NCBI GenBank assembly: GCA_021604645.1
Contig: BQJJ01000009.1
Coordinates: 122,037-186,036 of the forward strand
Source: Methyloligella sp.
GTDB lineage: Bacteria > Pseudomonadota > Alphaproteobacteria > Rhizobiales > HXMU1428-3
Direction: 5' to 3'
Length of the DNA: 64,000 nt
The notes beneath the pieces were generated by a model. The model was given only the letters and a program-made list of their open reading frames with translations. It had not been told where the DNA came from and did no database searches. Both the position numbers and the translations under genes were made by a program. This document shows, piece by piece, positions 47,873 through 55,979 of the stretch (its first letter is position 1; every line of letters starts with the position of its first letter).

Positions 47873-49450
47873 TCACTGATCAAAATCGCTCCATTTTAAT
47901 GAGAATTTTTCAAGATATTTCCTTAAACGATCTGCATCATTGCGTGTGCTCTTTGCAGCACGAGAAGCGGCAAAAAGTGTACGTCCTGCAGCGCTTAAGG
48001 ATCGACTTTGTTGGCATGTCCTAATGACCGTGGCTAATTGAACAATATCAAATGGATCAATTTTATCAGCTTCTGAGCCTAAGAATTGGCGTACGATTTT
48101 GTCATCTTCATTATCTTCTGCGCTGGCCCATTGATACTGCAAAGAATTGATTTCTTTCTCAACCATAGACAACGTTACACGGCCTCGCGGGGCCAGAGTG
48201 CACAAACGTTGCACAGAAGCCCCAAGGTCACGAAAGTTGCCAGGCCACAATGTTGCTGGATCAGTTGCAAAGCGAATGTATTTCTTGGTCGCGTCAGCAT
48301 TAAATCCGACTTTAACCCCTAAGCTTTGTTCTGCTTTGCTGAGTTCAAACTCAATATTGGGTTCTATGTCTTCTCGTCTATCTTGCAATGCGGGCAAACT
48401 AAAGGTCCATAAATTTAAACGAGCAAACAAGTCCGGTCTAAATAAGCCTTTAGCAACCAGCTTCCCAAGGTCTCGATTGGCGCCAGCAATTAGTTGGAAT
48501 TTGCTGGTGATTTCGTGATCGGAACCAAGAGGGAAGAACTTACCTGTCTCAATGGCATGCAAAATCATTGCTTGCTCATCTTGTCCCAATTCATCAATTT
48601 CGTCGAGAAAAAGAACGCCGCCATCAGCTTCTCTCAGTAGGCCCTTGCGATCAGTAGGTGCTCCAGCAAAGGCCCCGCGGCGATGACCAAAAAGGTTGGA
48701 CATCGCTCGTTCGCCCTTAAGGGTTGAGCAGTTTACATGGATAAACCTCCCTTTTACGCGGCGGCGTTGGAGTTTGAGTTCATAGATGCGTTCTGCAAGC
48801 TCAGATTTTCCGGTGCCGGTCGCACCAAGTAAAAGTAAAGGCGCATCCGTTGTGGTCGCGACCAATTCTATTCTTTCTATAAGCTGGTTGAATTCTTTGT
48901 TTCGGGTATTTATCCCGGCTTTTAGTAAAGCGTTATACTCATCAGAGATGAGGTCGAAGCGTTGTTGCAGGGCATTATATTTGGAAAGGTCCAAATCAAC
49001 GATATTAATCTGGCCTTCAGGACCGTGTTCTTCTTTTCGTGGAGGTGCCGTTTGTAAAAGGCGGGCAGGAATGTGGCGAGACTCGGTTAAAAGAAACCAG
49101 CAAATTTGCGCAACATGTGTGCCTGTTGTGAGGTGAACATGATAGTCCTCACGCTCTTCATCAAATTCATAATTGCGCGCAAAGTCGAATAAGGCGCCAT
49201 AAACTTCCTGGAAGTCCCAGGGGTTATTTAGATCTATTAGCTGGAGAAGCACTTCTGTTTCTGGGGTCTCGGTTTCAATCTCCGTTTTAATTGAGTGAGC
49301 GAGATTTGAATGATGGCGGTCGTAGAGAAGTTCCATACGTTCTACTGGAAACGCTTCATGCTTTGTAAGAGAGGGGGAGGGCCGCCAGCGTCTCTTTTTG
49401 CCAGCATCTAAATTCGTGCCAAGGAAGCCAATAACAACATTATTTTTCAT
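47873..49450 (-). CDS. rtcR: RtcR, sigma-54 activator of RNA repair genes
   Basis: 525 residues. An N-terminal CARF-type domain (NVVIGFLGTNLDAGKKRRW..., LTTGTHVAQI) that in characterised RtcR senses RNA ends; an AAA+ domain with Walker A GATGTGKS (about 213), the contact loop as GAFAGA (about 264) and Walker B FLDEIDEL; a C-terminal helix-turn-helix (LSAAGRTLFAASRAAKSTRN). It should activate the divergent rsr-rtcB operon on RNA damage. The region between them holds a 14-bp inverted repeat. Confidence 0.95.
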   Translation of the reverse strand: MKNNVVIGFLGTNLDAGKKRRWRPSPSLTKHEAFPVERMELLYDRHHSNLAHSIKTEIETETPETEVLLQLIDLNNPWDFQEVYGALFDFARNYEFDEEREDYHVHLTTGTHVAQICWFLLTESRHIPARLLQTAPPRKEEHGPEGQINIVDLDLSKYNALQQRFDLISDEYNALLKAGINTRNKEFNQLIERIELVATTTDAPLLLLGATGTGKSELAERIYELKLQRRRVKGRFIHVNCSTLKGERAMSNLFGHRRGAFAGAPTDRKGLLREADGGVLFLDEIDELGQDEQAMILHAIETGKFFPLGSDHEITSKFQLIAGANRDLGKLVAKGLFRPDLFARLNLWTFSLPALQDRREDIEPNIEFELSKAEQSLGVKVGFNADATKKYIRFATDPATLWPGNFRDLGASVQRLCTLAPRGRVTLSMVEKEINSLQYQWASAEDNEDDKIVRQFLGSEADKIDPFDIVQLATVIRTCQQSRSLSAAGRTLFAASRAAKSTRNDADRLRKYLEKFSLKWSDFDQ

Positions 49451-49454
49451 AGCG

Positions 49455-49488
49455 TATATATTTTTCTAAAAGAGTAGAAAAATATATA
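49455..49488. promoter_or_regulatory. 14-bp perfect inverted repeat between rtcR and rsr
   Basis: TATATATTTTTCTA (49455-49468) and TAGAAAAATATATA (49475-49488), spaced by six bases, lie immediately upstream of rtcR and about 140 bases before rsr. It fits an RtcR activator site. I could not find a consensus -24/-12 element between it and rsr. Confidence 0.6.
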
Positions 49489-49621
49489 ATAAAATATCGT
49501 TATTTTTTTGTTAAACGGTGAAATGTCATTTAAAAACAATGGATTGCAGGTTTTTCGTTTTTTCTTTTTTTTAGCCAGTTTTCGCGACAAACTAATCTCA
49601 TACAAAACAAGGAATAGAAAA

Positions 49622-51178
49622 ATGGCAAACAAATCTGTGTTTGCATCAGGGCGCGGTAGAATGATCCCGAAAGCTGATGCACTGAATAAAGAAGGCGCTC
49701 CGGCCTATGCATATGCTGACCAGCATCTGTTGGCTCAATTGGCAATGACAGGCACGATTAGTGATCTATATTACCAACAAGCTGAAGTTGAGCTTGAAGC
49801 AATATTAGATACAGCGAGCAATGTTTCACCTGAATTCTTGGCAAAAACGGCCATCTATGTTCGAGAAAAAGGGCATATGAAAGATATGCCAGCTTTATTG
49901 TTAGCAATCTTGGCTTCACGGGATACTGAGCTATTTTCAAACACATTCCCGCGCGTTGTAACAAACGGGAAGATGTTGCGTAATTTTGTTCAAATCATAC
50001 GATCAGGCCAAACAGGACGAAAGTCTTTGGGAACACGGCCAAAAGCGCTTGTATCAAACTGGTTGAAAACGGCAACAGATCGACAGTTGCTACAAGCAAG
50101 TGTTGGTAATAGCCCATCATTGTCTGATGTGATCAAGATGGTGCACCCAAAGCCAGGTGATAAGGCGCGTGAAGCTTTTTTTGCTTGGTTGATTGGTAAG
50201 CCATGTGATTTGGAAAAATTGCCAAAAGAAGTACGCGAGTATATTGCCTATAAAGAAAATGAAGGTGGCCCGTTGCCAGATGTGCCATTTCAGATGCTAA
50301 CGCATTTGCCATTGACTGCAAAGAAATGGGCAAAGATTGCACGTGGCGGTAGCTGGCAAATGGTCCGCATGAACTTAAACACATTTCAGCGCCAAGGTGC
50401 TTTTAGCATTAAAGGAGTAACAAAAGATGTTGCTGAAATTTTAAGAGATCCGACACGCATCAAAAAGGCACGGGTATTTCCGTATCAATTGATGACGGCT
50501 TATCAATCACTTTCTGCGGATATTCCTGTAGAAATTAGGGATGCGTTGCACGACGCAATGGAAATTGCAGTTGCAAACGTACCTAAGATTAAAGGGCAGG
50601 TGGTCATTTGTCCGGACGTTTCCGGCTCAATGTTGTCACCTGTAACCGGTTATCGAAAAGGAGCGACAACATCAACAAGGTTTGTTCATGTTGCAGCTCT
50701 GGTCTCAGCAGCATTCTTACGCCGTAATCGCGGTGCAACAGTGCTACCGTTTGAGTTTAAAGTTTGTAAGACACAGCTTGAAGCTCGAGATACGGTTTTA
50801 ACCAATGCACAGAGACTAACGGATCTGGCTGGTGGTGGAACAAACTGTTCTGCACCTCTAGAGTGGTTACTTGCCCGAAAACAGGCACCAGATTTAGTTA
50901 TCTTTGTTTCAGATAATGAATCCTGGGCAGATGCTAATCGTTATGGAAGAGGTACGATGATGATGAAAAATTGGGAAAAGCTTAAAAAGCGGAACCCAAA
51001 AGCCAAATTGGTTTGCATCGATATCGCGCCTTATGGAACGACACAAGTTCCATCTCGCTCAGATGTTTTAAACATTGGCGGGTTTTCGGATGCGGTCTTT
51101 GATCAGATCGCAGCCTTTGCTGAAGACCGTCTTGGAGCAGACCATTGGGTTGGAGAAATTGAAGGCATGAAATTGTAA
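49622..51178 (+). CDS. rsr: Ro60 orthologue Rsr (TROVE + VWA domains)
   Basis: Ring-shaped RNA-binding protein that holds structured or damaged RNAs and a Y RNA on its surface. 518 residues from ATG 49622 (AAGGAA upstream; earlier frame not family-like). The HEAT-like TROVE domain covers about 1-320 (YVREKGHMKDMPALLLAILA; FPRVVTNGKMLRNFVQIIRS). The VWA domain follows with the MIDAS motif DVSGS (about 333-337) and LAGGGTNCSAPL. It is followed directly by the Y RNA region and rtcB, the known rsr-yrl-rtcB order. Confidence 0.95.
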   Translation: MANKSVFASGRGRMIPKADALNKEGAPAYAYADQHLLAQLAMTGTISDLYYQQAEVELEAILDTASNVSPEFLAKTAIYVREKGHMKDMPALLLAILASRDTELFSNTFPRVVTNGKMLRNFVQIIRSGQTGRKSLGTRPKALVSNWLKTATDRQLLQASVGNSPSLSDVIKMVHPKPGDKAREAFFAWLIGKPCDLEKLPKEVREYIAYKENEGGPLPDVPFQMLTHLPLTAKKWAKIARGGSWQMVRMNLNTFQRQGAFSIKGVTKDVAEILRDPTRIKKARVFPYQLMTAYQSLSADIPVEIRDALHDAMEIAVANVPKIKGQVVICPDVSGSMLSPVTGYRKGATTSTRFVHVAALVSAAFLRRNRGATVLPFEFKVCKTQLEARDTVLTNAQRLTDLAGGGTNCSAPLEWLLARKQAPDLVIFVSDNESWADANRYGRGTMMMKNWEKLKKRNPKAKLVCIDIAPYGTTQVPSRSDVLNIGGFSDAVFDQIAAFAEDRLGADHWVGEIEGMKL

Positions 51179-51235: not shown

Positions 51236-51305
51236 CCTGGTGAATGCAGGTGGAACTACATCATTAAGCTATGACAAAGACGTTTCATCAAATCTTGTCA
51301 CCAGG
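51236..51305 (+). ncRNA. Y RNA 1 (short form, about 70 nt)
   Basis: Ends pair as CCTGGTGA (51236-51243) with TCACCAGG (51298-51305). Inside is the pattern common to all four: GAATGC on the 5' side, CTTG on the 3' side, an upper stem TGGAAC/GTTTCA, and an unpaired ACTACATC. The loop is short (about 20 bases), without a tRNA-like module. The bottom stem reads GGTGAATG, close to the Ro60-binding consensus GNCGAAN0-1G of bacterial Y RNAs as I recall it. Confidence 0.75.
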
Positions 51306-51339
51306 ACATTTGAAAAAAATGAATTGTAATTAAATTGAA

Positions 51340-51477
51340 TTTTGACGAATGCCAATGGAACTACATTCACGCCGGAGGTTATGTGAGTGGCGCCACATCA
51401 ATATGGAAAACAATATTGTAGCTCAAAAGCTTAAGAGTACCGGCTTTCCATGTTTCATTAACAACTTGTCGTCAAAA
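51340..51477 (+). ncRNA. Y RNA 2 (about 138 nt, multi-hairpin module)
   Basis: TTTTGACGA (51340-51348) pairs with TCGTCAAAA (51469-51477), with GACGAATG fitting the Ro60 consensus. The shared inner pattern ATGGAACTACAT / ATGTTTCAT is present. The enclosed module is bounded by GCCGG/CCGGC (51371/51440) and holds hairpins ATGTG/CACAT (51381-51398) and GTAGCTC/GAGTAC (51418-51439). The latter looks like a tRNA D arm without the GG pair. No T arm is visible. Confidence 0.75.
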
Positions 51478-51500
51478 CAAAAAAGAAATTTTGAAAATTA

Positions 51501-51630
51501 GGGCGAATGCCTGCAGAACTACATCGACTCTTAATCGCCAGGTCGCAGGTTCGAATCCTGCCGCTGCAACCATTTATGGCAGCGTAGCTCAGTGGTAGAG
51601 CAGGAACGTTTTGCATCACACTTGTCGCCC
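51501..51630 (+). ncRNA. Y RNA 3, YrlA-like with circularly permuted tRNA-like module (Lys-CTT-like)
   Basis: Bottom stem GGGCGA/TCGCCC with GGCGAATG, upper stem GCAGAAC/GTTTTGC, then ACTACATC. Enclosed, in order: a mini-anticodon arm CGA-CTCTTAA-TCG (loop as in tRNA-Lys CTT), a perfect T arm GCAGG-TTCGAAT-CCTGC (51545-51561), acceptor 3' strand CGCTGC, ACCA (51569-51572), linker TTTAT, acceptor 5' strand GCAGCG, TA, and D arm GCTC-AGTGGTA-GAGC (51587-51601). This is a tRNA in permuted order, closed at the acceptor end and opened at the anticodon side into the Y stem. Confidence 0.85.
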
Positions 51631-51640
51631 GCTTTTAACT

Positions 51641-51718
51641 CAGAGGTTAGCCCAGTCCGGTTAGAGTGCCGCACTTGGACTGCGGAGGTCGAAGGTTCAA
51701 ATCCTTCATCCCTGACCA
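51641..51718 (+). tRNA. tRNA-Pro(TGG)-like sequence, possibly degenerate
   Basis: 78 bases in normal order. Acceptor CAGAGGT/ATCCCTG pairs except for an A-C clash and a G-U; the D stem GCCC/GAGT is weak with one mismatch. Anticodon stem CCGCA/TGCGG is perfect with loop CTTGGAC (anticodon TGG). T arm GAAGG-TTCAAAT-CCTTC is perfect, and ACCA is encoded. A T-run follows. It may be a working tRNA-Pro, a decoy, or a pseudo-tRNA; the clashes favour the latter two. Confidence 0.6.
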
Positions 51719-51726
51719 AATTTTTT

Positions 51727-51797
51727 AGATGGAGCTCAATAGGAAGAGCACTTCGCAATTAACGAGGGAGATATAGGTTCGAACCCTATCATCTCTG
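51727..51797 (+). pseudogene. Degenerate tRNA-like sequence (anticodon region ATT)
   Basis: A cloverleaf remnant: acceptor only AGATG/CATCT (5 bp), D arm GCTC-AATAGGAA-GAGC, anticodon stem CTTCG/CGAGG with loop CAATTAA where U33 is replaced by A, and a perfect T arm ATAGG-TTCGAAC-CCTAT. There is no CCA (ends GCAA). It is unlikely to be a decoding tRNA, but the arms are well kept, suggesting selection for shape. Confidence 0.55.
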
Positions 51798-51819
51798 CAA
51801 GAATAAAGAAGATAATTTA

Positions 51820-51953
51820 GAGCGAATGCTGATGGAACTACATCGTTGTGGACGACCGAGTCGCGGGTTCGAATCCCGCCACTGCTACCATTTGTGGCAG
51901 TGTAGCTCAGCGGTAGAGCAGGAGAAAATGTTTCATCAAAACACTTGTCGCTC
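51820..51953 (+). ncRNA. Y RNA 4, YrlA-like with circularly permuted tRNA-like module (His-GTG-like)
   Basis: Bottom stem GAGCGA/TCGCTC with GAGCGAATG, upper stem TGATGGAAC/GTTTCATCA, then ACTACATC. Inside: mini-anticodon arm TCG-TTGTGGA-CGA (His GTG-like loop), T arm GCGGG-TTCGAAT-CCCGC (51863-51879), acceptor 3' strand CACTGCT, ACCA (51887-51890), linker TTTGT, acceptor 5' strand GGCAGTG, TA, D arm GCTC-AGCGGTA-GAGC (51905-51919). The acceptor pairs over 7 bp. Topology is the same as Y RNA 3, with compensating changes in the stems. Confidence 0.85.
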
Positions 51954-51967
51954 ACATAGTTTGAGAG

Positions 51968-52064
51968 ATGCCAGTAGGATTACAGGTAGACGCAATTCTT
52001 CCCGTTTGGGAAGAATGGTTCTGAGGAAACTCAGACCGTGCTGGTTCAAATCCAGCCTGAAGTA
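51968..52064 (+). pseudogene. Degenerate type II (Leu-like) tRNA sequence
   Basis: The D region GGATTACAGGTAGACGC is typical of tRNA-Leu. A perfect hairpin ATTCTTCCC-GTTT-GGGAAGAAT (51995-52016) takes the place of the anticodon arm and has no usable anticodon loop. A long variable arm TCTGAG-GAAA-CTCAGA (52020-52035) and a perfect T arm GCTGG-TTCAAAT-CCAGC (52040-52056) follow. Acceptor pairing is 5 of 7 and CCA is absent. Confidence 0.55.
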
Positions 52065-52156
52065 ATTCAGTGGCGGAATATAAATATCTTACTAACAACT
52101 TGCTCTCATTTAAATGAAGCAAATATCAAACCGACCGATTATGAACGAGATGTAAA

Positions 52157-53560
52157 ATGACTGAAACAACAACAAATAAATTGACCAGCGAAACGCTTTC
52201 CTCTTGGGGACATAAGCCAGGGAAAGAATTTGGCGCAGCGTTACGTGATGGAACAACAGCTCTTATCGAAGGTAAATCCTTGGTCGAAGTTCGTACAATG
52301 TTGGAAAGCTATAAACCAGCGCCAACAATCCCTCTTAGAGATAAGGGTGAGTTAGAGTTTTCTATAAACATTGAAGCATCATCTCCAGATGAAGAAGAAA
52401 ACATCATCAAAGTTTCAGAAACAATGACTGAGCTTATGCGCACACCAACTGTTGAAGCTGGGACTGTGATGCCAGACGCTTGTCCAGCTGGGCCAGTTGG
52501 TACTATTCCAGTTGGGGGTGTGGTGGCAACAAAAAATGCCATTCATCCTGGGATGCATAGCGCTGATATTTGTTGCTCTGTCATGATGACAAATTTTGGT
52601 AATGCAGAGCCTAAATCCGTTTTAGATGCCATGAATGATGTCACTCATTTTGGTTTTGGCGGACGACCAAATGGTAAACGCTTCACAGTGTCATTAGATC
52701 TTCTTGATCAATTTCGTGAAAATAGATTCTTGAATGGCAAAAAGTTATTACGAAGCGCTCAAGAACATATGGGTACGCAAGGCGATGGTAATCATTTTGC
52801 TTTTGTCGGAAAATCACGAGCAACTGGTAAAACTGCACTTGTAACCCATCATGGTTCACGTGGGCCAGGGGCTTTGCTTTATAAAGAAGGTATGAAAGTT
52901 GCGGAAAAATTTCGCAAAAAGTTATCGCCTAAAACCTTGAAGCAAAATGCCTGGATTCCGGCCGACACAGAAGAAGGCCAGGACTATTGGCAAGCTTTGC
53001 AGTTGATCCGTAAATGGACAAAGGCCAATCATAATGCACTGCACCAAGCAACTTGTGATGTGCTTGAGGTTGAGCATGAAGATCGGTTTTGGAATGAGCA
53101 TAATTTTGTCTTTGAGCGTGATGGTTTGTTTTATCACGGCAAAGGAGCGACACCCGCTTGGGATGAGTTTGCGTGTGACGCTACAGGTTTAACGCTCATT
53201 CCACTAAATATGTCTGAGCCTATTTTGGTCGTACGTGGTAAAGATGCAACGCATGCCCTAGGTTTCAGCCCTCATGGCGCTGGGCGGAATTTTTCACGTG
53301 CTGAGCATCGTCGCCGTATGGGAAACATGACAGCTGAGGAAATGCTTGCCTTGGAAACCGAAGGCTTGGATATCCGTTTCTTTGGCGGCAATATTGATCC
53401 GTCAGAATTGCCATCTGGTTATAAAAATGCTGAAGCTGTTGTTCGTCAAATAGAGAAATATGGGCTCGCTGAAATTGAGGATTATATTGATCCTTATGGC
53501 TGCATCATGGCCGGTGATCAGCCAAAGCCTTGGCTTAATAAAAAGAAGAAAAGAAACTAA
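52157..53560 (+). CDS. rtcB: RNA ligase RtcB
   Basis: Seals RNA 2',3'-cyclic phosphate or 3'-phosphate ends to 5'-OH ends with GTP and Mn. 467 residues. Metal and guanylylation residues can be placed: HSADICC (Asp and Cys, about 133-139), GDGNH (about 209-213), HHGSRG (about 231-236) and SPHGAGR (about 371-377, with the His that carries GMP). GDGNHFAFV lacks the usual IE after NHF, as in some RtcB paralogues. The Y RNA/tRNA-like cluster lies directly upstream and is presumably co-transcribed. Confidence 0.95.
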   Translation: MTETTTNKLTSETLSSWGHKPGKEFGAALRDGTTALIEGKSLVEVRTMLESYKPAPTIPLRDKGELEFSINIEASSPDEEENIIKVSETMTELMRTPTVEAGTVMPDACPAGPVGTIPVGGVVATKNAIHPGMHSADICCSVMMTNFGNAEPKSVLDAMNDVTHFGFGGRPNGKRFTVSLDLLDQFRENRFLNGKKLLRSAQEHMGTQGDGNHFAFVGKSRATGKTALVTHHGSRGPGALLYKEGMKVAEKFRKKLSPKTLKQNAWIPADTEEGQDYWQALQLIRKWTKANHNALHQATCDVLEVEHEDRFWNEHNFVFERDGLFYHGKGATPAWDEFACDATGLTLIPLNMSEPILVVRGKDATHALGFSPHGAGRNFSRAEHRRRMGNMTAEEMLALETEGLDIRFFGGNIDPSELPSGYKNAEAVVRQIEKYGLAEIEDYIDPYGCIMAGDQPKPWLNKKKKRN

Positions 53561-53647: not shown

Positions 53648-54625
53648 ATGAAAATGATAGTACAGATGAAATTTGGGTCTCACCTTTATGGTACCTCAAC
53701 TCCTCAGTCTGATACGGATATTAAGGGAGTTTTTCTGCCTTCCCCGCGAGATATATTGCTACAACAAGTCAAACCTATGATTTCCCAGAGCAGATCAAAA
53801 GAGCATGGAGAAAAAAACACATCTGAAGATATTGACCGAGAAGCATATAGCTTGCAGCGATATTTAGAATTGCTCTCTCAAGGCCAAACAGTTGCTTTGG
53901 ATATGCTATTTGCTCCTGATTGGGCCATGATTAAGCAACCAGACCAGGTTTGGTTGGAATTGAAAGAGATAGCACCTTGCTTAATCGCTAAAGGGGCCGC
54001 TTCTTTTGTGAAATATTGCCGTCAACAGGCCAATAAATATGGGGTCAAAGGGTCTCGAGTTGCAGCATCACGATTAGCTTTAGAGGTTTTAAGAAAAGCT
54101 GAAGATCAATACGGTTCTGATAAAAAGTTAGAAGTGAGCTTCAAAGACTTAAAAGGTGTTGTCGATCAGAATGAGTTTCTAAATTTTAGCGAAAGTGAGC
54201 AGCCAAACGGTGAGCGGATTAAGTACTTCGAAGTGTGTGGAAAAAAAGCCTTGCTTACGTCTTCAATTAGAAATGCTCGAGAGATTTCGGAGAACCTCGT
54301 CAATCAATATGGTCAACGGGCTTTGGCAGCTGAAAAGAATGAGGGAGTTGATTGGAAAGCACTGTCTCATGCTGTGCGTGTTGGGCATGAAGCTATTGAA
54401 CTTTTCAACACCGGGAAAATTACATTCCCACGCCCTGAGGCAGAATATTTGTTGAAAATCAAACAAGGAAAAATTGAATATAGAGACGTAGCTGAAGAGA
54501 TTGAACAGCTATTTGAAAAAGTCGAAAATTCAGCAGAACAATCCAAGTTGCCAGATGAAGTAGATGAAAGAATAATCAATGATTTTATCATGGAGCACTA
54601 TGGTGAACAGGTGAGAAACCAATGA
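53648..54625 (+). CDS. Nucleotidyltransferase, RNA-repair associated (COG3541-like)
   Basis: 325 residues. The polymerase-beta nucleotidyltransferase motif GSHLYGTSTPQSDTDIKG (about 10-27) gives the GS and DxD catalytic signature. The rest is helical. Relatives are found beside RtcB, RNA ligase and Pnkp/Hen1 repair genes (RlaP-type) and may add nucleotides to damaged RNA ends; activity here is inferred. The stop overlaps the next start (ATGA). Confidence 0.82.
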   Translation: MKMIVQMKFGSHLYGTSTPQSDTDIKGVFLPSPRDILLQQVKPMISQSRSKEHGEKNTSEDIDREAYSLQRYLELLSQGQTVALDMLFAPDWAMIKQPDQVWLELKEIAPCLIAKGAASFVKYCRQQANKYGVKGSRVAASRLALEVLRKAEDQYGSDKKLEVSFKDLKGVVDQNEFLNFSESEQPNGERIKYFEVCGKKALLTSSIRNAREISENLVNQYGQRALAAEKNEGVDWKALSHAVRVGHEAIELFNTGKITFPRPEAEYLLKIKQGKIEYRDVAEEIEQLFEKVENSAEQSKLPDEVDERIINDFIMEHYGEQVRNQ

Positions 54626-55428
54626 AAGAACATTTGAAAAAACACATATGCTCAAAGCTAAATGAATTGGCTGGCCAACATAATATCAAGATTCTTCATG
54701 CTATTGAATCAGGAAGCCGAGCTTGGGGGTTCCCATCCACGGATAGTGATTATGATGTCCGTTTTATCTATGTTCATAATTTAGATCATTATCTATCGGT
54801 TGACGGTAAGAGAGATGTGATTGAAACACTAATTGTTCATGACCCAACATTGGGCGTGGATTTTGACATGAACGGTTGGGATTTGAAAAAAGCAGTTTAT
54901 CTTGCCTTGCGAGGCAATGCTGTTGTCAATGAATGGCATACATCACCAATTCAGTATGTTTACAATGAAGAGTTTCATAGCAATTTAAAGAAGTTCATTA
55001 ACCAAGTTAGTGACCTCAAGGCATATTATCATTTTTATCGTAATTATATGCGCCAACCGTGGGAGAGCTATAGAGAGGATCAGGCTAAGAAAATTAAAAT
55101 AAAGCATTATTGTTATGTTCTACGTTGCGCTTTAGCTTTGAAGTGGCTCGACAATCAAAAAACGCCGCCACCAATGGACGTCCCCTCTCTATTAAAAGGT
55201 GGATCTTTTAGCCAAGGATTAAAAGATCAAATAGACCTTCTAATCTCAAAAAAAGCAGAGGCCATAGAAGCAAATACAATAGAACGAAATCAAATATTAG
55301 ATGAGTTTATCGATAAGACTATATTCGTAGAAAGACAACGACCATTTAAAGACAAATTGCAAGAGAGGCACATTGATAAGGCAAATCAATTGTTTAAGGA
55401 AATGGTCCTCCTAAATAATTTAAAATAA
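54622..55428 (+). CDS. Second RlaP-like nucleotidyltransferase
   Basis: 268 residues with GSRAWGFPSTDSDYDVRFIY (about 31-50), the minimal nucleotidyltransferase motif, and FDMNGWDLKKAVYLALRGN. Translationally coupled to the preceding gene by a 4-base overlap. Having two divergent NTases in one RNA-repair operon suggests a heteromeric enzyme or two substrates. Confidence 0.85.
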   Translation: MKEHLKKHICSKLNELAGQHNIKILHAIESGSRAWGFPSTDSDYDVRFIYVHNLDHYLSVDGKRDVIETLIVHDPTLGVDFDMNGWDLKKAVYLALRGNAVVNEWHTSPIQYVYNEEFHSNLKKFINQVSDLKAYYHFYRNYMRQPWESYREDQAKKIKIKHYCYVLRCALALKWLDNQKTPPPMDVPSLLKGGSFSQGLKDQIDLLISKKAEAIEANTIERNQILDEFIDKTIFVERQRPFKDKLQERHIDKANQLFKEMVLLNNLK

Positions 55429-55457
55429 ATTTATTAAGAAAATAAGAAAGAAAAAAA

Positions 55458-55979
55458 ATGACAATTATAATGGTCGATGTTGAAAGCGACGGCCCGATAC
55501 CTGGAGATTATTCTATGATCTCTTTTGGCGCCGTGATCGTAGAACAAGGTCTCGAAAAAACATTTTATGGTCAACTTAAACCAATAAGTGAAAAATGGAT
55601 ACCCGAAGCACTTGCCGTCTCTGGCTTTAACCGAGAGGAAACTCTAGAGTTTGATGATCCAAAAGTAGTGATGGAAAAATTCAGTAAATGGCTAAATGAA
55701 AACTGTAAAACACGCCCACTATTTTTTAGTGATAATAACGGCTTTGATTGGCAATTCATCAATTGGTATTTCATCCATTTTTTAGATAACAACCCATTTG
55801 GGTTTAGCTCTACCAATCTTGGGTCGTTATATAAAGGGCTGGTAAAAGATACATTCAAAAATTTTAAGCATCTGCGAAAGACAAAGCACACTCACAACCC
55901 TGTTGATGATGCAATGGGAAATGCTGAAGCATTGTTACATATGAAAAATGAAATGGGTTTAAAAATTAGTTTGAAATAA
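55458..55979 (+). CDS. DEDDh 3'-5' exonuclease (RNase T-like)
   Basis: 173 residues. ExoI Asp7 and Glu9 (MVDVESDGP), ExoII Asp in FFSDNNGFDWQF (about 90-100), ExoIII His and Asp in HTHNPVDDAMGNAEAL (about 143-158). Expected to trim RNA or DNA 3' ends. It starts 29 bases after the NTase gene and is the last gene of the island, so a role in trimming damaged tRNA ends before repair is plausible. Confidence 0.87.
   Translation: MTIIMVDVESDGPIPGDYSMISFGAVIVEQGLEKTFYGQLKPISEKWIPEALAVSGFNREETLEFDDPKVVMEKFSKWLNENCKTRPLFFSDNNGFDWQFINWYFIHFLDNNPFGFSSTNLGSLYKGLVKDTFKNFKHLRKTKHTHNPVDDAMGNAEALLHMKNEMGLKISLK

What the first reader, a model, noticed from the sequence alone, without database searches (positions are those of the whole stretch)
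51236..52064. Four Y RNAs and three tRNA-like sequences packed between rsr and rtcB
Seen directly: four segments share the same end-pairing stem, GNxGAATG on the 5' side, CTTGTCxx on the 3' side, an upper stem GAAC/GTTT and an unpaired ACTACATC. Established: bacterial Ro60 (Rsr) genes are accompanied by Y RNAs, usually one or two. Here the number is four, with different central modules (none, multi-hairpin, two tRNA-like), and three linear tRNA-like sequences are interspersed. This suggests a family of Ro60 tethers with different partners, or an array of tRNA decoys for RNA repair.
Basis: partly seen in the sequence, partly recalled or inferred. Interest (0 to 1): 0.93.

Follow-up and report, generated by a model that had tools for sequence, protein, structure and literature searches.

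The report
Repair operon carrying its own tRNAs
Between two RNA-repair genes this bacterium carries five predicted Y RNA genes, one tRNA gene and one decayed tRNA gene, and related bacteria keep extra proline, asparagine and glutamine tRNA genes at the same spot, which would likely replace tRNAs destroyed during stress.

Summary
The rsr-rtcB interval holds five Y RNAs, not four: the "third tRNA-like sequence" is the inside of the fifth, a circularly permuted tRNA-Leu mimic opened at its D loop and mounted on a Y stem. Twenty-two of 98 sources searched hold a strong match to this type, and 21 of 26 pairs covary in 18 homologues. The first tRNA-like sequence is a tRNA-Pro(UGG). The second is a decaying tRNA-Asn-like relic (62% identical to a genus mate; tRNA-Pro 96%). 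Several Y RNAs per locus is usual (median three in 81 loci). The surprise is the tRNAs: 24 of 46 alphaproteobacterial rsr loci, and 0 of 51 others, carry tRNA-Pro, -Asn, -Gln or -Lys genes there, diverged from housekeeping copies, with covarying cloverleaf stems and encoded CCA. The tRNA-Pro has A37 in 12 of 12; housekeeping tRNA-Pro has G37 in 16 of 16. Best explanation: a damage-induced operon supplying ligase, Rsr tethers and replacement tRNAs. Resupply is inference; decoys remain a serious rival. In passing: RtcR of this clade has a degenerate sigma54-contact loop and the operon lacks the sigma54 promoter box.

The parts
47873..49450 (-). rtcR, RNA-repair transcriptional activator; sigma54-contact loop reads GAFAGA instead of GAFTGA
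   Evidence: NCBIfam NF038308 729.4 bits, cutoff 650; Pfam RtcR 1.7e-72; loop letters
49622..51178 (+). rsr, Ro60-related protein (divergent)
   Evidence: Pfam vWA_Ro60 57.3 bits and TROVE 27.9 bits, both over cutoff; PDB 2nvo Rsr 6.8e-20 over residues 20-501; NCBIfam Rsr 70.8 bits, far under its cutoff of 900
51236..51305 (+). Y1: minimal Y RNA without a central module
   Evidence: two-stem descriptor; fold z -2.98; no Rfam match
51340..51477 (+). Y2: Y RNA with a diverged YrlA-like module
   Evidence: descriptor; Rfam YrlA 31.0 bits, under the cutoff of 69; fold z -1.32
51501..51630 (+). Y3: YrlA-type Y RNA with tRNA-like domain
   Evidence: Rfam YrlA 70.8 bits; descriptor; fold z -1.60
51641..51718 (+). 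tRNA-Pro(UGG) gene with encoded CCA and A37; two stem mismatches
   Evidence: ARAGORN; Rfam tRNA 54.9 bits; 12 orthologues; covariation; mismatches
51725..51797 (+). decaying tRNA-Asn-like relic (anticodon AUU, A33, no CCA)
   Evidence: Rfam tRNA 38.2 bits; 62.3% identity to L004 over 51725-51800; not called by ARAGORN
51820..51953 (+). Y4: YrlA-type Y RNA with tRNA-like domain and an internal ACCA
   Evidence: Rfam YrlA 70.1 bits; descriptor; fold z -2.71
51962..52108 (+). Y5: Y RNA carrying a circularly permuted tRNA-Leu-type domain opened at the D loop, acceptor closed as a hairpin
   Evidence: descriptor; 18 homologues with covarying stems; fold z -5.11; model R2
52157..53560 (+). rtcB, RNA ligase (divergent)
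   Evidence: Pfam RtcB 120.9 bits, cutoff 27; under the NCBIfam cutoffs
53648..54625 (+). RlaP-type nucleotidyltransferase 1
   Evidence: Pfam RlaP 53.3 bits
54622..55428 (+). RlaP-type nucleotidyltransferase 2
   Evidence: Pfam RlaP 234.6 bits
55458..55979 (+). RNase T-like exonuclease
   Evidence: Pfam RNase_T 31.3 bits

Best explanation
The rsr-rtcB interval holds five predicted Y RNA genes, one tRNA-Pro gene and one decayed tRNA-Asn-like gene, and it most likely acts as a damage-induced reserve: when tRNAs are cut, RtcR would switch on the operon and supply the ligase, Rsr with several tRNA-mimic tethers, and fresh copies of particular tRNAs. Shown here: the anatomy, the covarying stems, the orthologous array tRNAs in related genomes, their divergence from housekeeping copies, and the divergently placed rtcR. 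Taken from published Salmonella work (PMC7790460, discussion section and passages read): tRNA 5' halves ending in 2',3'-cyclic phosphate bind RtcR and activate the operon. Inferred: co-transcription through the array, release of the tRNAs by processing enzymes, charging, and use in translation. Inferred: A37 of the array tRNA-Pro changes its nuclease sensitivity or its need for the TrmD methyl mark. In the window's own genus the tRNA part looks to be eroding.
For: tRNA genes lie between rsr and rtcB (or in the first 1.6 kb after rsr where no rtcB was seen) in 24 of 46 alphaproteobacterial loci and 0 of 51 others (after removing one misread Y RNA from each count). 37 tRNAs in 57,863 bp of interval against 5 in 172,618 bp upstream. 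Array Pro and Asn form clades apart from housekeeping genes (support 1.0 for ten Pro, 0.94 for eleven Asn). Array Pro: 98.3% of cells paired, 10 of 21 pairs changed on both sides, 0 of 500 shuffles reach the covariation score. Array Asn and Gln together: 98.6%, 11 of 21, 0 of 500. CCA encoded in 35 of 35 aligned copies. The Pro anticodon changes UGG to CGG in L012 and L026, keeping proline (the two loci are close relatives). Window against L004: tRNA-Pro 96.2% and Y2-Y4 93.5-95.4% identical, against 86.6% and 84.7% for rsr and rtcB DNA. A divergent rtcR stands in all 17 named array loci tested besides the window. No terminator-like or sigma70-promoter-like site was found between 51179 and 52156. 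Precedents: Anabaena's silent tRNA operon and rtcB share the repressor TrcR (PMC10272220, abstract and passages); phage tRNAs rescue phages from retron-Eco7 and PrrC170 (PMC11555353, passages).
Against: No expression, charging or phenotype data. Array Asn loops equal the housekeeping ones in the 6 genomes where one was retrieved, and array Gln loops do in 7 of 10, so nuclease evasion is not general. A37 may make tRNA-Pro a poor ProRS substrate: G37-unmodified tRNA-Pro is charged 17.5-fold less efficiently in E. coli (PMC8643618, passages). The window's tRNA-Pro has two stem mismatches, its minimum-energy fold is not the cloverleaf, its Asn-like neighbour is decaying, and genus member G007 shows neither. 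22 of 46 alphaproteobacterial loci have no tRNA there. No sigma54 box precedes rsr in the window and its RtcR loop is degenerate, so the Salmonella switch may not carry over unchanged.
Confidence: 0.45

Rival explanations
1. Decoys: the array tRNAs and tRNA-like Y RNAs are made to occupy, or be cut by, the attacking anticodon nuclease (or to load the Rsr/RtcB machinery), and are not meant for translation.
For: Y2 to Y5 already carry tRNA-mimic domains. Hughes et al. [quoted passage not shown] A37 may lower charging by ProRS (PMC8643618, passages). Array Asn loops equal the housekeeping ones in 6 of 6 genomes compared, as a bait would need.
Against: Encoded CCA in 35 of 35 aligned copies, acceptor stems kept by two-sided changes, and an anticodon change that keeps proline would not be needed for a bait.
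Confidence: 0.25
2. Punctuation: the tRNAs serve as cutting sites by which RNase P and 3' processing enzymes release the Y RNAs from a long transcript; their coding identity does not matter.
For: tRNAs lie between Y RNAs with short spacers (window: 10 bases before and 6 after tRNA-Pro), and no promoter- or terminator-like site was seen in between.
Against: Isoacceptor-specific orthology over many genera and conserved anticodons. Many neighbouring Y RNAs have no tRNA between them, and 22 of 46 alphaproteobacterial loci and 51 of 51 others have no tRNA there at all.
Confidence: 0.12
3. Passengers: tRNA genes picked up by chance, perhaps from phages, and kept for a while near a variable non-coding array.
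For: Phage tRNA-Pro is up to 82% identical to the array tRNA-Pro of L008, and Agrobacterium and Rhizobium phages carry an adjacent tRNA-Asn/tRNA-Gln pair. The window's Asn-like gene decays, and G007 has lost the tRNAs.
Against: Strong two-sided covariation and encoded CCA, and a tRNA-Pro more conserved than nearby coding DNA, point to selection. The one phage tRNA-Pro sequence looked at, of 230 records matched, has G37 and not A37.
Confidence: 0.13

Closest known systems
rsr-yrlBA-rtcBA RNA repair operon of Salmonella (PMC7790460; passages and discussion read)
   Same: Divergent rtcR, rsr, Y RNAs with tRNA-like domains, rtcB in the same order.
   Different: Here five Y RNAs, a tRNA gene and a tRNA relic; no RtcA among the six operon proteins scanned, two RlaP nucleotidyltransferases and an exonuclease instead; degenerate GAFTGA loop and no sigma54 box.
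YrlA Y RNA (Rfam RF02553)
   Same: Y3 and Y4 pass the cutoff; Y2 resembles it weakly.
   Different: Y5 is opened at the D loop and keeps an arm at the anticodon position and a long variable arm; in YrlA the Y stem stands in place of the anticodon arm. Y1 has no module.
Anabaena trn operon with TrcR (PMC10272220; abstract and passages read)
   Same: Extra tRNA genes and an rtcB gene under shared stress control, beside housekeeping tRNAs.
   Different: 26 tRNAs on a megaplasmid with rtcB elsewhere and a repressor as switch; here one to three specific tRNAs inside the rsr-rtcB operon, beside Y RNAs and rtcR.
Phage tRNAs that counter anticodon nucleases (PMC10264068, PMC11555353; passages read)
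   Same: Extra tRNAs with changed bodies and, for Pro, a changed anticodon loop.
   Different: Encoded by the bacterium in its own repair operon; Asn loops and most Gln loops are unchanged; no rescue tested.

Membership tests
Bacterial Y RNA (Y1-Y5) | Encoded beside rsr | tested here: met
   All five lie between rsr and rtcB; no other descriptor hit in the 64 kb
Bacterial Y RNA (Y1-Y5) | End-pairing stem with conserved GAATG/CTTGTC elements and covarying pairs | tested here: met
   Y5 deviates in letters (GATG, CTTGCTC) but keeps the pairing
Bacterial Y RNA (Y1-Y5) | Binds Rsr | not testable with these tools
   No binding data held
YrlA (Rfam RF02553) | Score over the curated cutoff of 69 bits | tested here: inconclusive
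   Met by Y3 (70.8) and Y4 (70.1); not met by Y2 (31.0), Y1 and Y5
tRNA (array tRNA-Pro of the window) | Score over the Rfam cutoff and ARAGORN call with anticodon and CCA | tested here: met
   54.9 bits against 29; UGG; CCA encoded; but two stem mismatches
tRNA (array tRNA-Pro of the window) | Is charged and used in translation | not testable with these tools
   No expression data held
Rtc RNA-repair operon | Divergent rtcR and an rtcB ligase | tested here: met
   NCBIfam RtcR over cutoff; Pfam RtcB
Rtc RNA-repair operon | rtcA cyclase next to rtcB | tested here: not met
   None of the six proteins from rtcR to the exonuclease matched a cyclase family; the rest of the genome was not searched for it
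Rtc RNA-repair operon | sigma54-dependent control (GAFTGA loop and -24/-12 box) | tested here: not met
   Loop GAFAGA, no box before rsr
Stress-induced spare tRNAs (Anabaena trn, phage tRNAs) | Extra copies beside housekeeping tRNAs of the same amino acid | tested here: met
   Housekeeping Pro retrieved in 9 of 9 genomes compared and in the window's own; Gln in 10 of 10; Asn in 6 of 9
Stress-induced spare tRNAs (Anabaena trn, phage tRNAs) | Induction by stress and use in translation | not testable with these tools
   No expression data held

The most novel reading that the evidence does not exclude
Alphaproteobacterial RNA-repair operons keep a private stock of replacement tRNAs (Pro, Asn, Gln, Lys), made only when RtcR senses broken tRNAs. 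One of them, tRNA-Pro with A37, is rebuilt to work without the TrmD methyl mark and to escape the nuclease. It is the host's own counterpart of phage anti-nuclease tRNAs. The same operon makes a new class of Y RNA that presents a circularly permuted tRNA-Leu, and its RtcR has abandoned sigma54.
Probability: 0.3. Interest if true: 0.88.

Novelty: new variant of a known kind. Interest (0 to 1): 0.72.

Why it matters
What Rsr and Y RNAs do in RNA-repair operons is open (PMC7790460, discussion). A cell that senses tRNA cleavage could ligate, degrade or replace the broken tRNA. A repair operon that also carries specific tRNA genes makes 'replace' directly testable and names isoacceptors that may be natural targets of the attacking nuclease. 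The Leu-type Y RNA shows that the Rsr tether can present more than one tRNA geometry, opened at different loops, which gives natural variants for asking which part of a tRNA the Rsr machine reads.

Tried and rejected
Altered position 37 as a general rule: I first compared array Gln with the window's own housekeeping Gln (A37) and thought position 37 was swapped. The housekeeping Gln of the genomes that carry array Gln has G37, so this was dropped; only Pro stands.

Third stand-alone tRNA: rejected once the flanking Y stems were seen and homologues aligned.

sigma54 promoter: a first strict pattern found nothing certain; a weighted scan found boxes in L031, L032 and L072 but not in the window or the other 14 array loci scanned.

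RtcR loop: a first search for GAF.GA alone missed G[SY][FY]TGA and fully degenerate loops; the count given uses aligned positions.

Model R2, built for the Leu-type Y RNA, also picks up most other Y RNAs at low scores (310 matches), so only scores of 78.6 bits or more are counted as that class: 22 of 98 sources, 18 of them the training rows. The other four (L018, L031, L116, L222) were inspected and keep TGGCGG and a GACGC half D arm.

A measure against covariation: 'further pair types' did not exceed shuffles for the Leu-type Y RNA (34 observed, 36.4 expected; 467 of 500 shuffles reach it), and only weakly for Asn plus Gln (21 against 18.7; 41 of 500). The other four measures were reached by 0 of 500 shuffles in each.

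ViennaRNA minimum-energy folds of tRNA-Pro (window and L004) do not show the cloverleaf; I rely on covariance models and covariation. Y2 and Y3 fold only modestly better than shuffles (z -1.32, -1.60).

Best match of another amino acid: three array copies are as close or closer to a housekeeping tRNA of another amino acid (L007 Gln to Pro 77% against Gln 72%; L011 Pro to Asn 60% against Pro 59%; L032 Asn to Met 68% against Asn 66%).

Sorting loci into alphaproteobacterial and other was mine, from record titles and kinship.
Full report
CHECK OF THE OBSERVATION. The window lies in a 3.57-Mb genome (G000:C9) of the Alphaproteobacteria (nearest named Rsr: a Hyphomicrobiales MAG, 94% identical). 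Between rsr (49622-51178) and rtcB (52157-53560) no reading frame of 80 residues or more is listed. Rfam finds two YrlA RNAs above cutoff (51500-51634 at 70.8 bits, 51819-51957 at 70.1), one below (51342-51478 at 31.0) and two tRNA matches (51641-51715 at 54.9 bits, 51725-51797 at 38.2). The three YrlA matches are the only ones at E<=0.001 in the genome. I wrote a two-stem descriptor: a GAATG...TACA 5' element and a CTTGTC 3' element, with at least four outer and five inner pairs. It finds exactly five hits in the 64 kb, all here, none on the minus strand. Across 81 rsr loci (window plus 80 fetched) it finds 259 hits downstream of rsr, and 4 in 702,370 bp of control sequence (upstream, and reverse strand). 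At five stem positions that the descriptor did not require, 157 to 179 of 184 unique stems still pair, with up to six pair types; choosing the longest helix inflates this somewhat.

FIVE Y RNAS, NOT FOUR. The fifth hit is 51962-52108. Its letters read like a tRNA-Leu D arm cut in two: ACAGGTAGACGC near the 5' end and TGGCGGAAT near the 3' end (compare the own tRNA-Leu genes). Between them lie an arm at the anticodon position, a long variable arm, a T arm and a short hairpin where the acceptor would be. The predicted fold has this junction and is far better than shuffles (z -5.11). Eighteen copies, the window's included, were found by pattern and aligned. 95.5% of cells pair, 21 of 26 pairs change on both sides, and the covariation score is 0.655 against 0.268 in shuffles (0 of 500 reach it); slid partners give 0.077-0.145. 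One measure, further pair types, does not exceed shuffles (467 of 500). The structure was drawn from these sequences, which favours it in the slid control. A covariance model of this class gives 78.6 bits or more in 22 of 98 sources, alpha- and betaproteobacteria by their titles; four were not in the training set and keep both half D arms. Rfam YrlA does not match it.

THE TRNA GENES. 51641-51718 is tRNA-Pro(UGG) by ARAGORN, with encoded CCA and the loop CUUGGAC. 51725-51797 looks like a decayed tRNA-Asn: anticodon AUU, A33, no CCA. Against the genus mate L004 the elements are 96.2% (tRNA-Pro), 93.5-95.4% (Y2-Y4), 88.4% (Y5), 87.5% (Y1) and 62.3% (Asn-like) identical, while rsr and rtcB DNA are 86.6% and 84.7%. 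So tRNA-Pro and Y2-Y4 are held more tightly than the coding DNA, and the Asn-like gene is not held. The window's tRNA-Pro has two stem mismatches (A4-C71 and C12-A25, gene numbering) that the other rows of its alignment do not share. In G007, another genus member, the first 729 bases of rsr and bases 499-1065 of rtcB are not found, and the stretch corresponding to tRNA-Pro and the Asn-like gene is missing. In this genus the array seems to be eroding. Rsr was matched in 3 of 8 genomes of the genus, G007's in two pieces.

THE SAME SPOT IN RELATIVES. Of 46 alphaproteobacterial rsr loci examined, 24 carry a tRNA gene between rsr and rtcB (or within 1.6 kb of rsr where no rtcB was seen); of 51 others, none (its raw output says 25 and 1, each including one Y RNA misread by ARAGORN). 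The genes are Pro in 12 loci, Asn in 12, Gln in 11 and Lys in 2. L007, L008, L009 and L011 have Pro, Asn and Gln together. Some loci are close relatives (L008/L009, L012/L026 and L022/L023/L024 exceed 90% in part), so the counts are not independent. Background: 5 tRNAs in 172,618 bp upstream against 37 in 57,863 bp of interval. Rsr at E<=1e-60 is uncommon: 7 of 385 genomes sampled across the class and 15 of 295 in the family of G275. Array tRNA-Pro DNA was matched in 2 of 385 class genomes: the window's own, and a cluster of ordinary Pro genes in G047.

ARE THEY REAL TRNAS? Array Pro and Asn form clades apart from housekeeping genes (support 1.0 for ten Pro, 0.94 for eleven Asn). The array Gln clade has no support (0), and the Pro of L031 and L072 and the Asn of L032 fall outside. 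Stems covary: Pro 98.3% of cells paired, 10 of 21 pairs changed on both sides; Asn plus Gln 98.6%, 11 of 21. All 35 aligned Pro, Asn and Gln copies end in CCA. Identity to the housekeeping copy of the same amino acid is 58-73% for Pro (9 genomes), 68-75% for Gln (10), 66-83% for Asn (6; none retrieved for L007, L011 and L027) and 72% for the one Lys compared. Position 37 of array Pro is A in 12 of 12; the 16 unique housekeeping Pro tRNAs retrieved all have G. Array Gln has G37 like its housekeeping partner in 7 of 10 genomes and A37 in 3. Array Asn loops equal the housekeeping ones in the 6 genomes compared.

HOW IT MOST LIKELY WORKS. In Salmonella, tRNA 5' halves with cyclic phosphate ends bind RtcR and activate rsr-yrlBA-rtcBA (PMC7790460: passages and discussion read). 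All 17 named array loci tested besides the window have rtcR upstream on the other strand; the other six array loci were not tested. Placing specific tRNA genes under that control would let the cell replace cut tRNAs while RtcB re-ligates others and Rsr with its tRNA-mimic tethers handles fragments. This step is inference. Anabaena offers a precedent: a silent 26-gene tRNA operon and rtcB share the repressor TrcR and are induced by translational stress (PMC10272220: abstract and passages). Phages offer another: phage tRNAs with changed anticodon loops are predicted to be insensitive to host nucleases (PMC10264068: passages), and phage tRNA-Tyr and tRNA-Lys rescue phages from retron-Eco7 and PrrC170 (PMC11555353: passages). 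The A37 of the Pro copies cuts both ways. That TrmD needs G37 is established; G37-unmodified tRNA-Pro is charged 17.5-fold less efficiently by E. coli ProRS (PMC8643618: passages). The array copy may be free of that requirement, or may be a poor substrate, as a decoy would be. Decoy, punctuation and passenger readings are given as rivals.

NOVELTY. Full-text searches listed no paper whose title or shown abstract describes tRNA genes inside rsr-rtcB operons. The papers most likely to mention them are not held: Chen 2014, Burroughs & Aravind 2016 (one search tried an id from memory), Sim & Wolin 2018. From recall, Burroughs & Aravind report a tRNA-like RNA with Band-7 repair systems. I therefore call this a new variant of a known kind and no more.

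SIDE FINDING ON REGULATION. In 77 RtcR proteins aligned at the sigma54-contact loop, 55 have G[ASY][FY]TGA, and 45 of these have a -24/-12-like box within 250 bases before rsr; 22 (the window included) have a degenerate loop and none has the box (Fisher p 6e-12, not corrected for relatedness). R. [quoted passage not shown] The window's genome still has rpoN.

Noticed in passing
window 47873-49621; L004-L021 and L025-L027: RtcR of this clade has a degenerate sigma54-contact loop (window GAFAGA; QAIPGA and others in Rhodobacteraceae) and no sigma54 box before rsr: 0 of 22, against 45 of 55 loci with an intact loop. Predicted sigma54-independent RtcR.
   Followed up: partly
window 49455-49488: Perfect inverted repeat, two 14-base arms 6 bases apart, between rtcR and rsr; possibly an RtcR operator.
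   Followed up: no
L245, L246, L255 (viral contigs): In 3 of 35 viral rsr loci the rsr gene sits inside a phage tRNA cluster (20, 20 and 35 tRNAs in the stretch fetched; L245 and L246 give identical lists).
   Followed up: partly
L116 (G007:C4:21702-25442): Decaying operon in a genus member: rsr lacks its first part, rtcB lacks an inner stretch, tRNA-Pro and the Asn-like gene are missing, and the second Y RNA has a different central module.
   Followed up: partly
window 53648-55979: Downstream of rtcB: two RlaP-type nucleotidyltransferases and an RNase T-like exonuclease in place of rtcA.
   Followed up: no
L274 (Rhizobium phage IG49); hits H11-H13 (Agrobacterium phages OLIVR5, OLIVR6): Phages of Rhizobiales carry an adjacent tRNA-Asn and tRNA-Gln pair, the order of the array pair in L007, L008, L009, L011 and L017.
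   Followed up: no
L275 (Rhizobium phaseoli plasmid): Plasmid-borne rtcR, an unnamed gene at the rsr position, three Y RNA descriptor hits and rtcB, with an annotated RNA ligase beyond rtcR; 35 plasmid records match the window's array in part.
   Followed up: no
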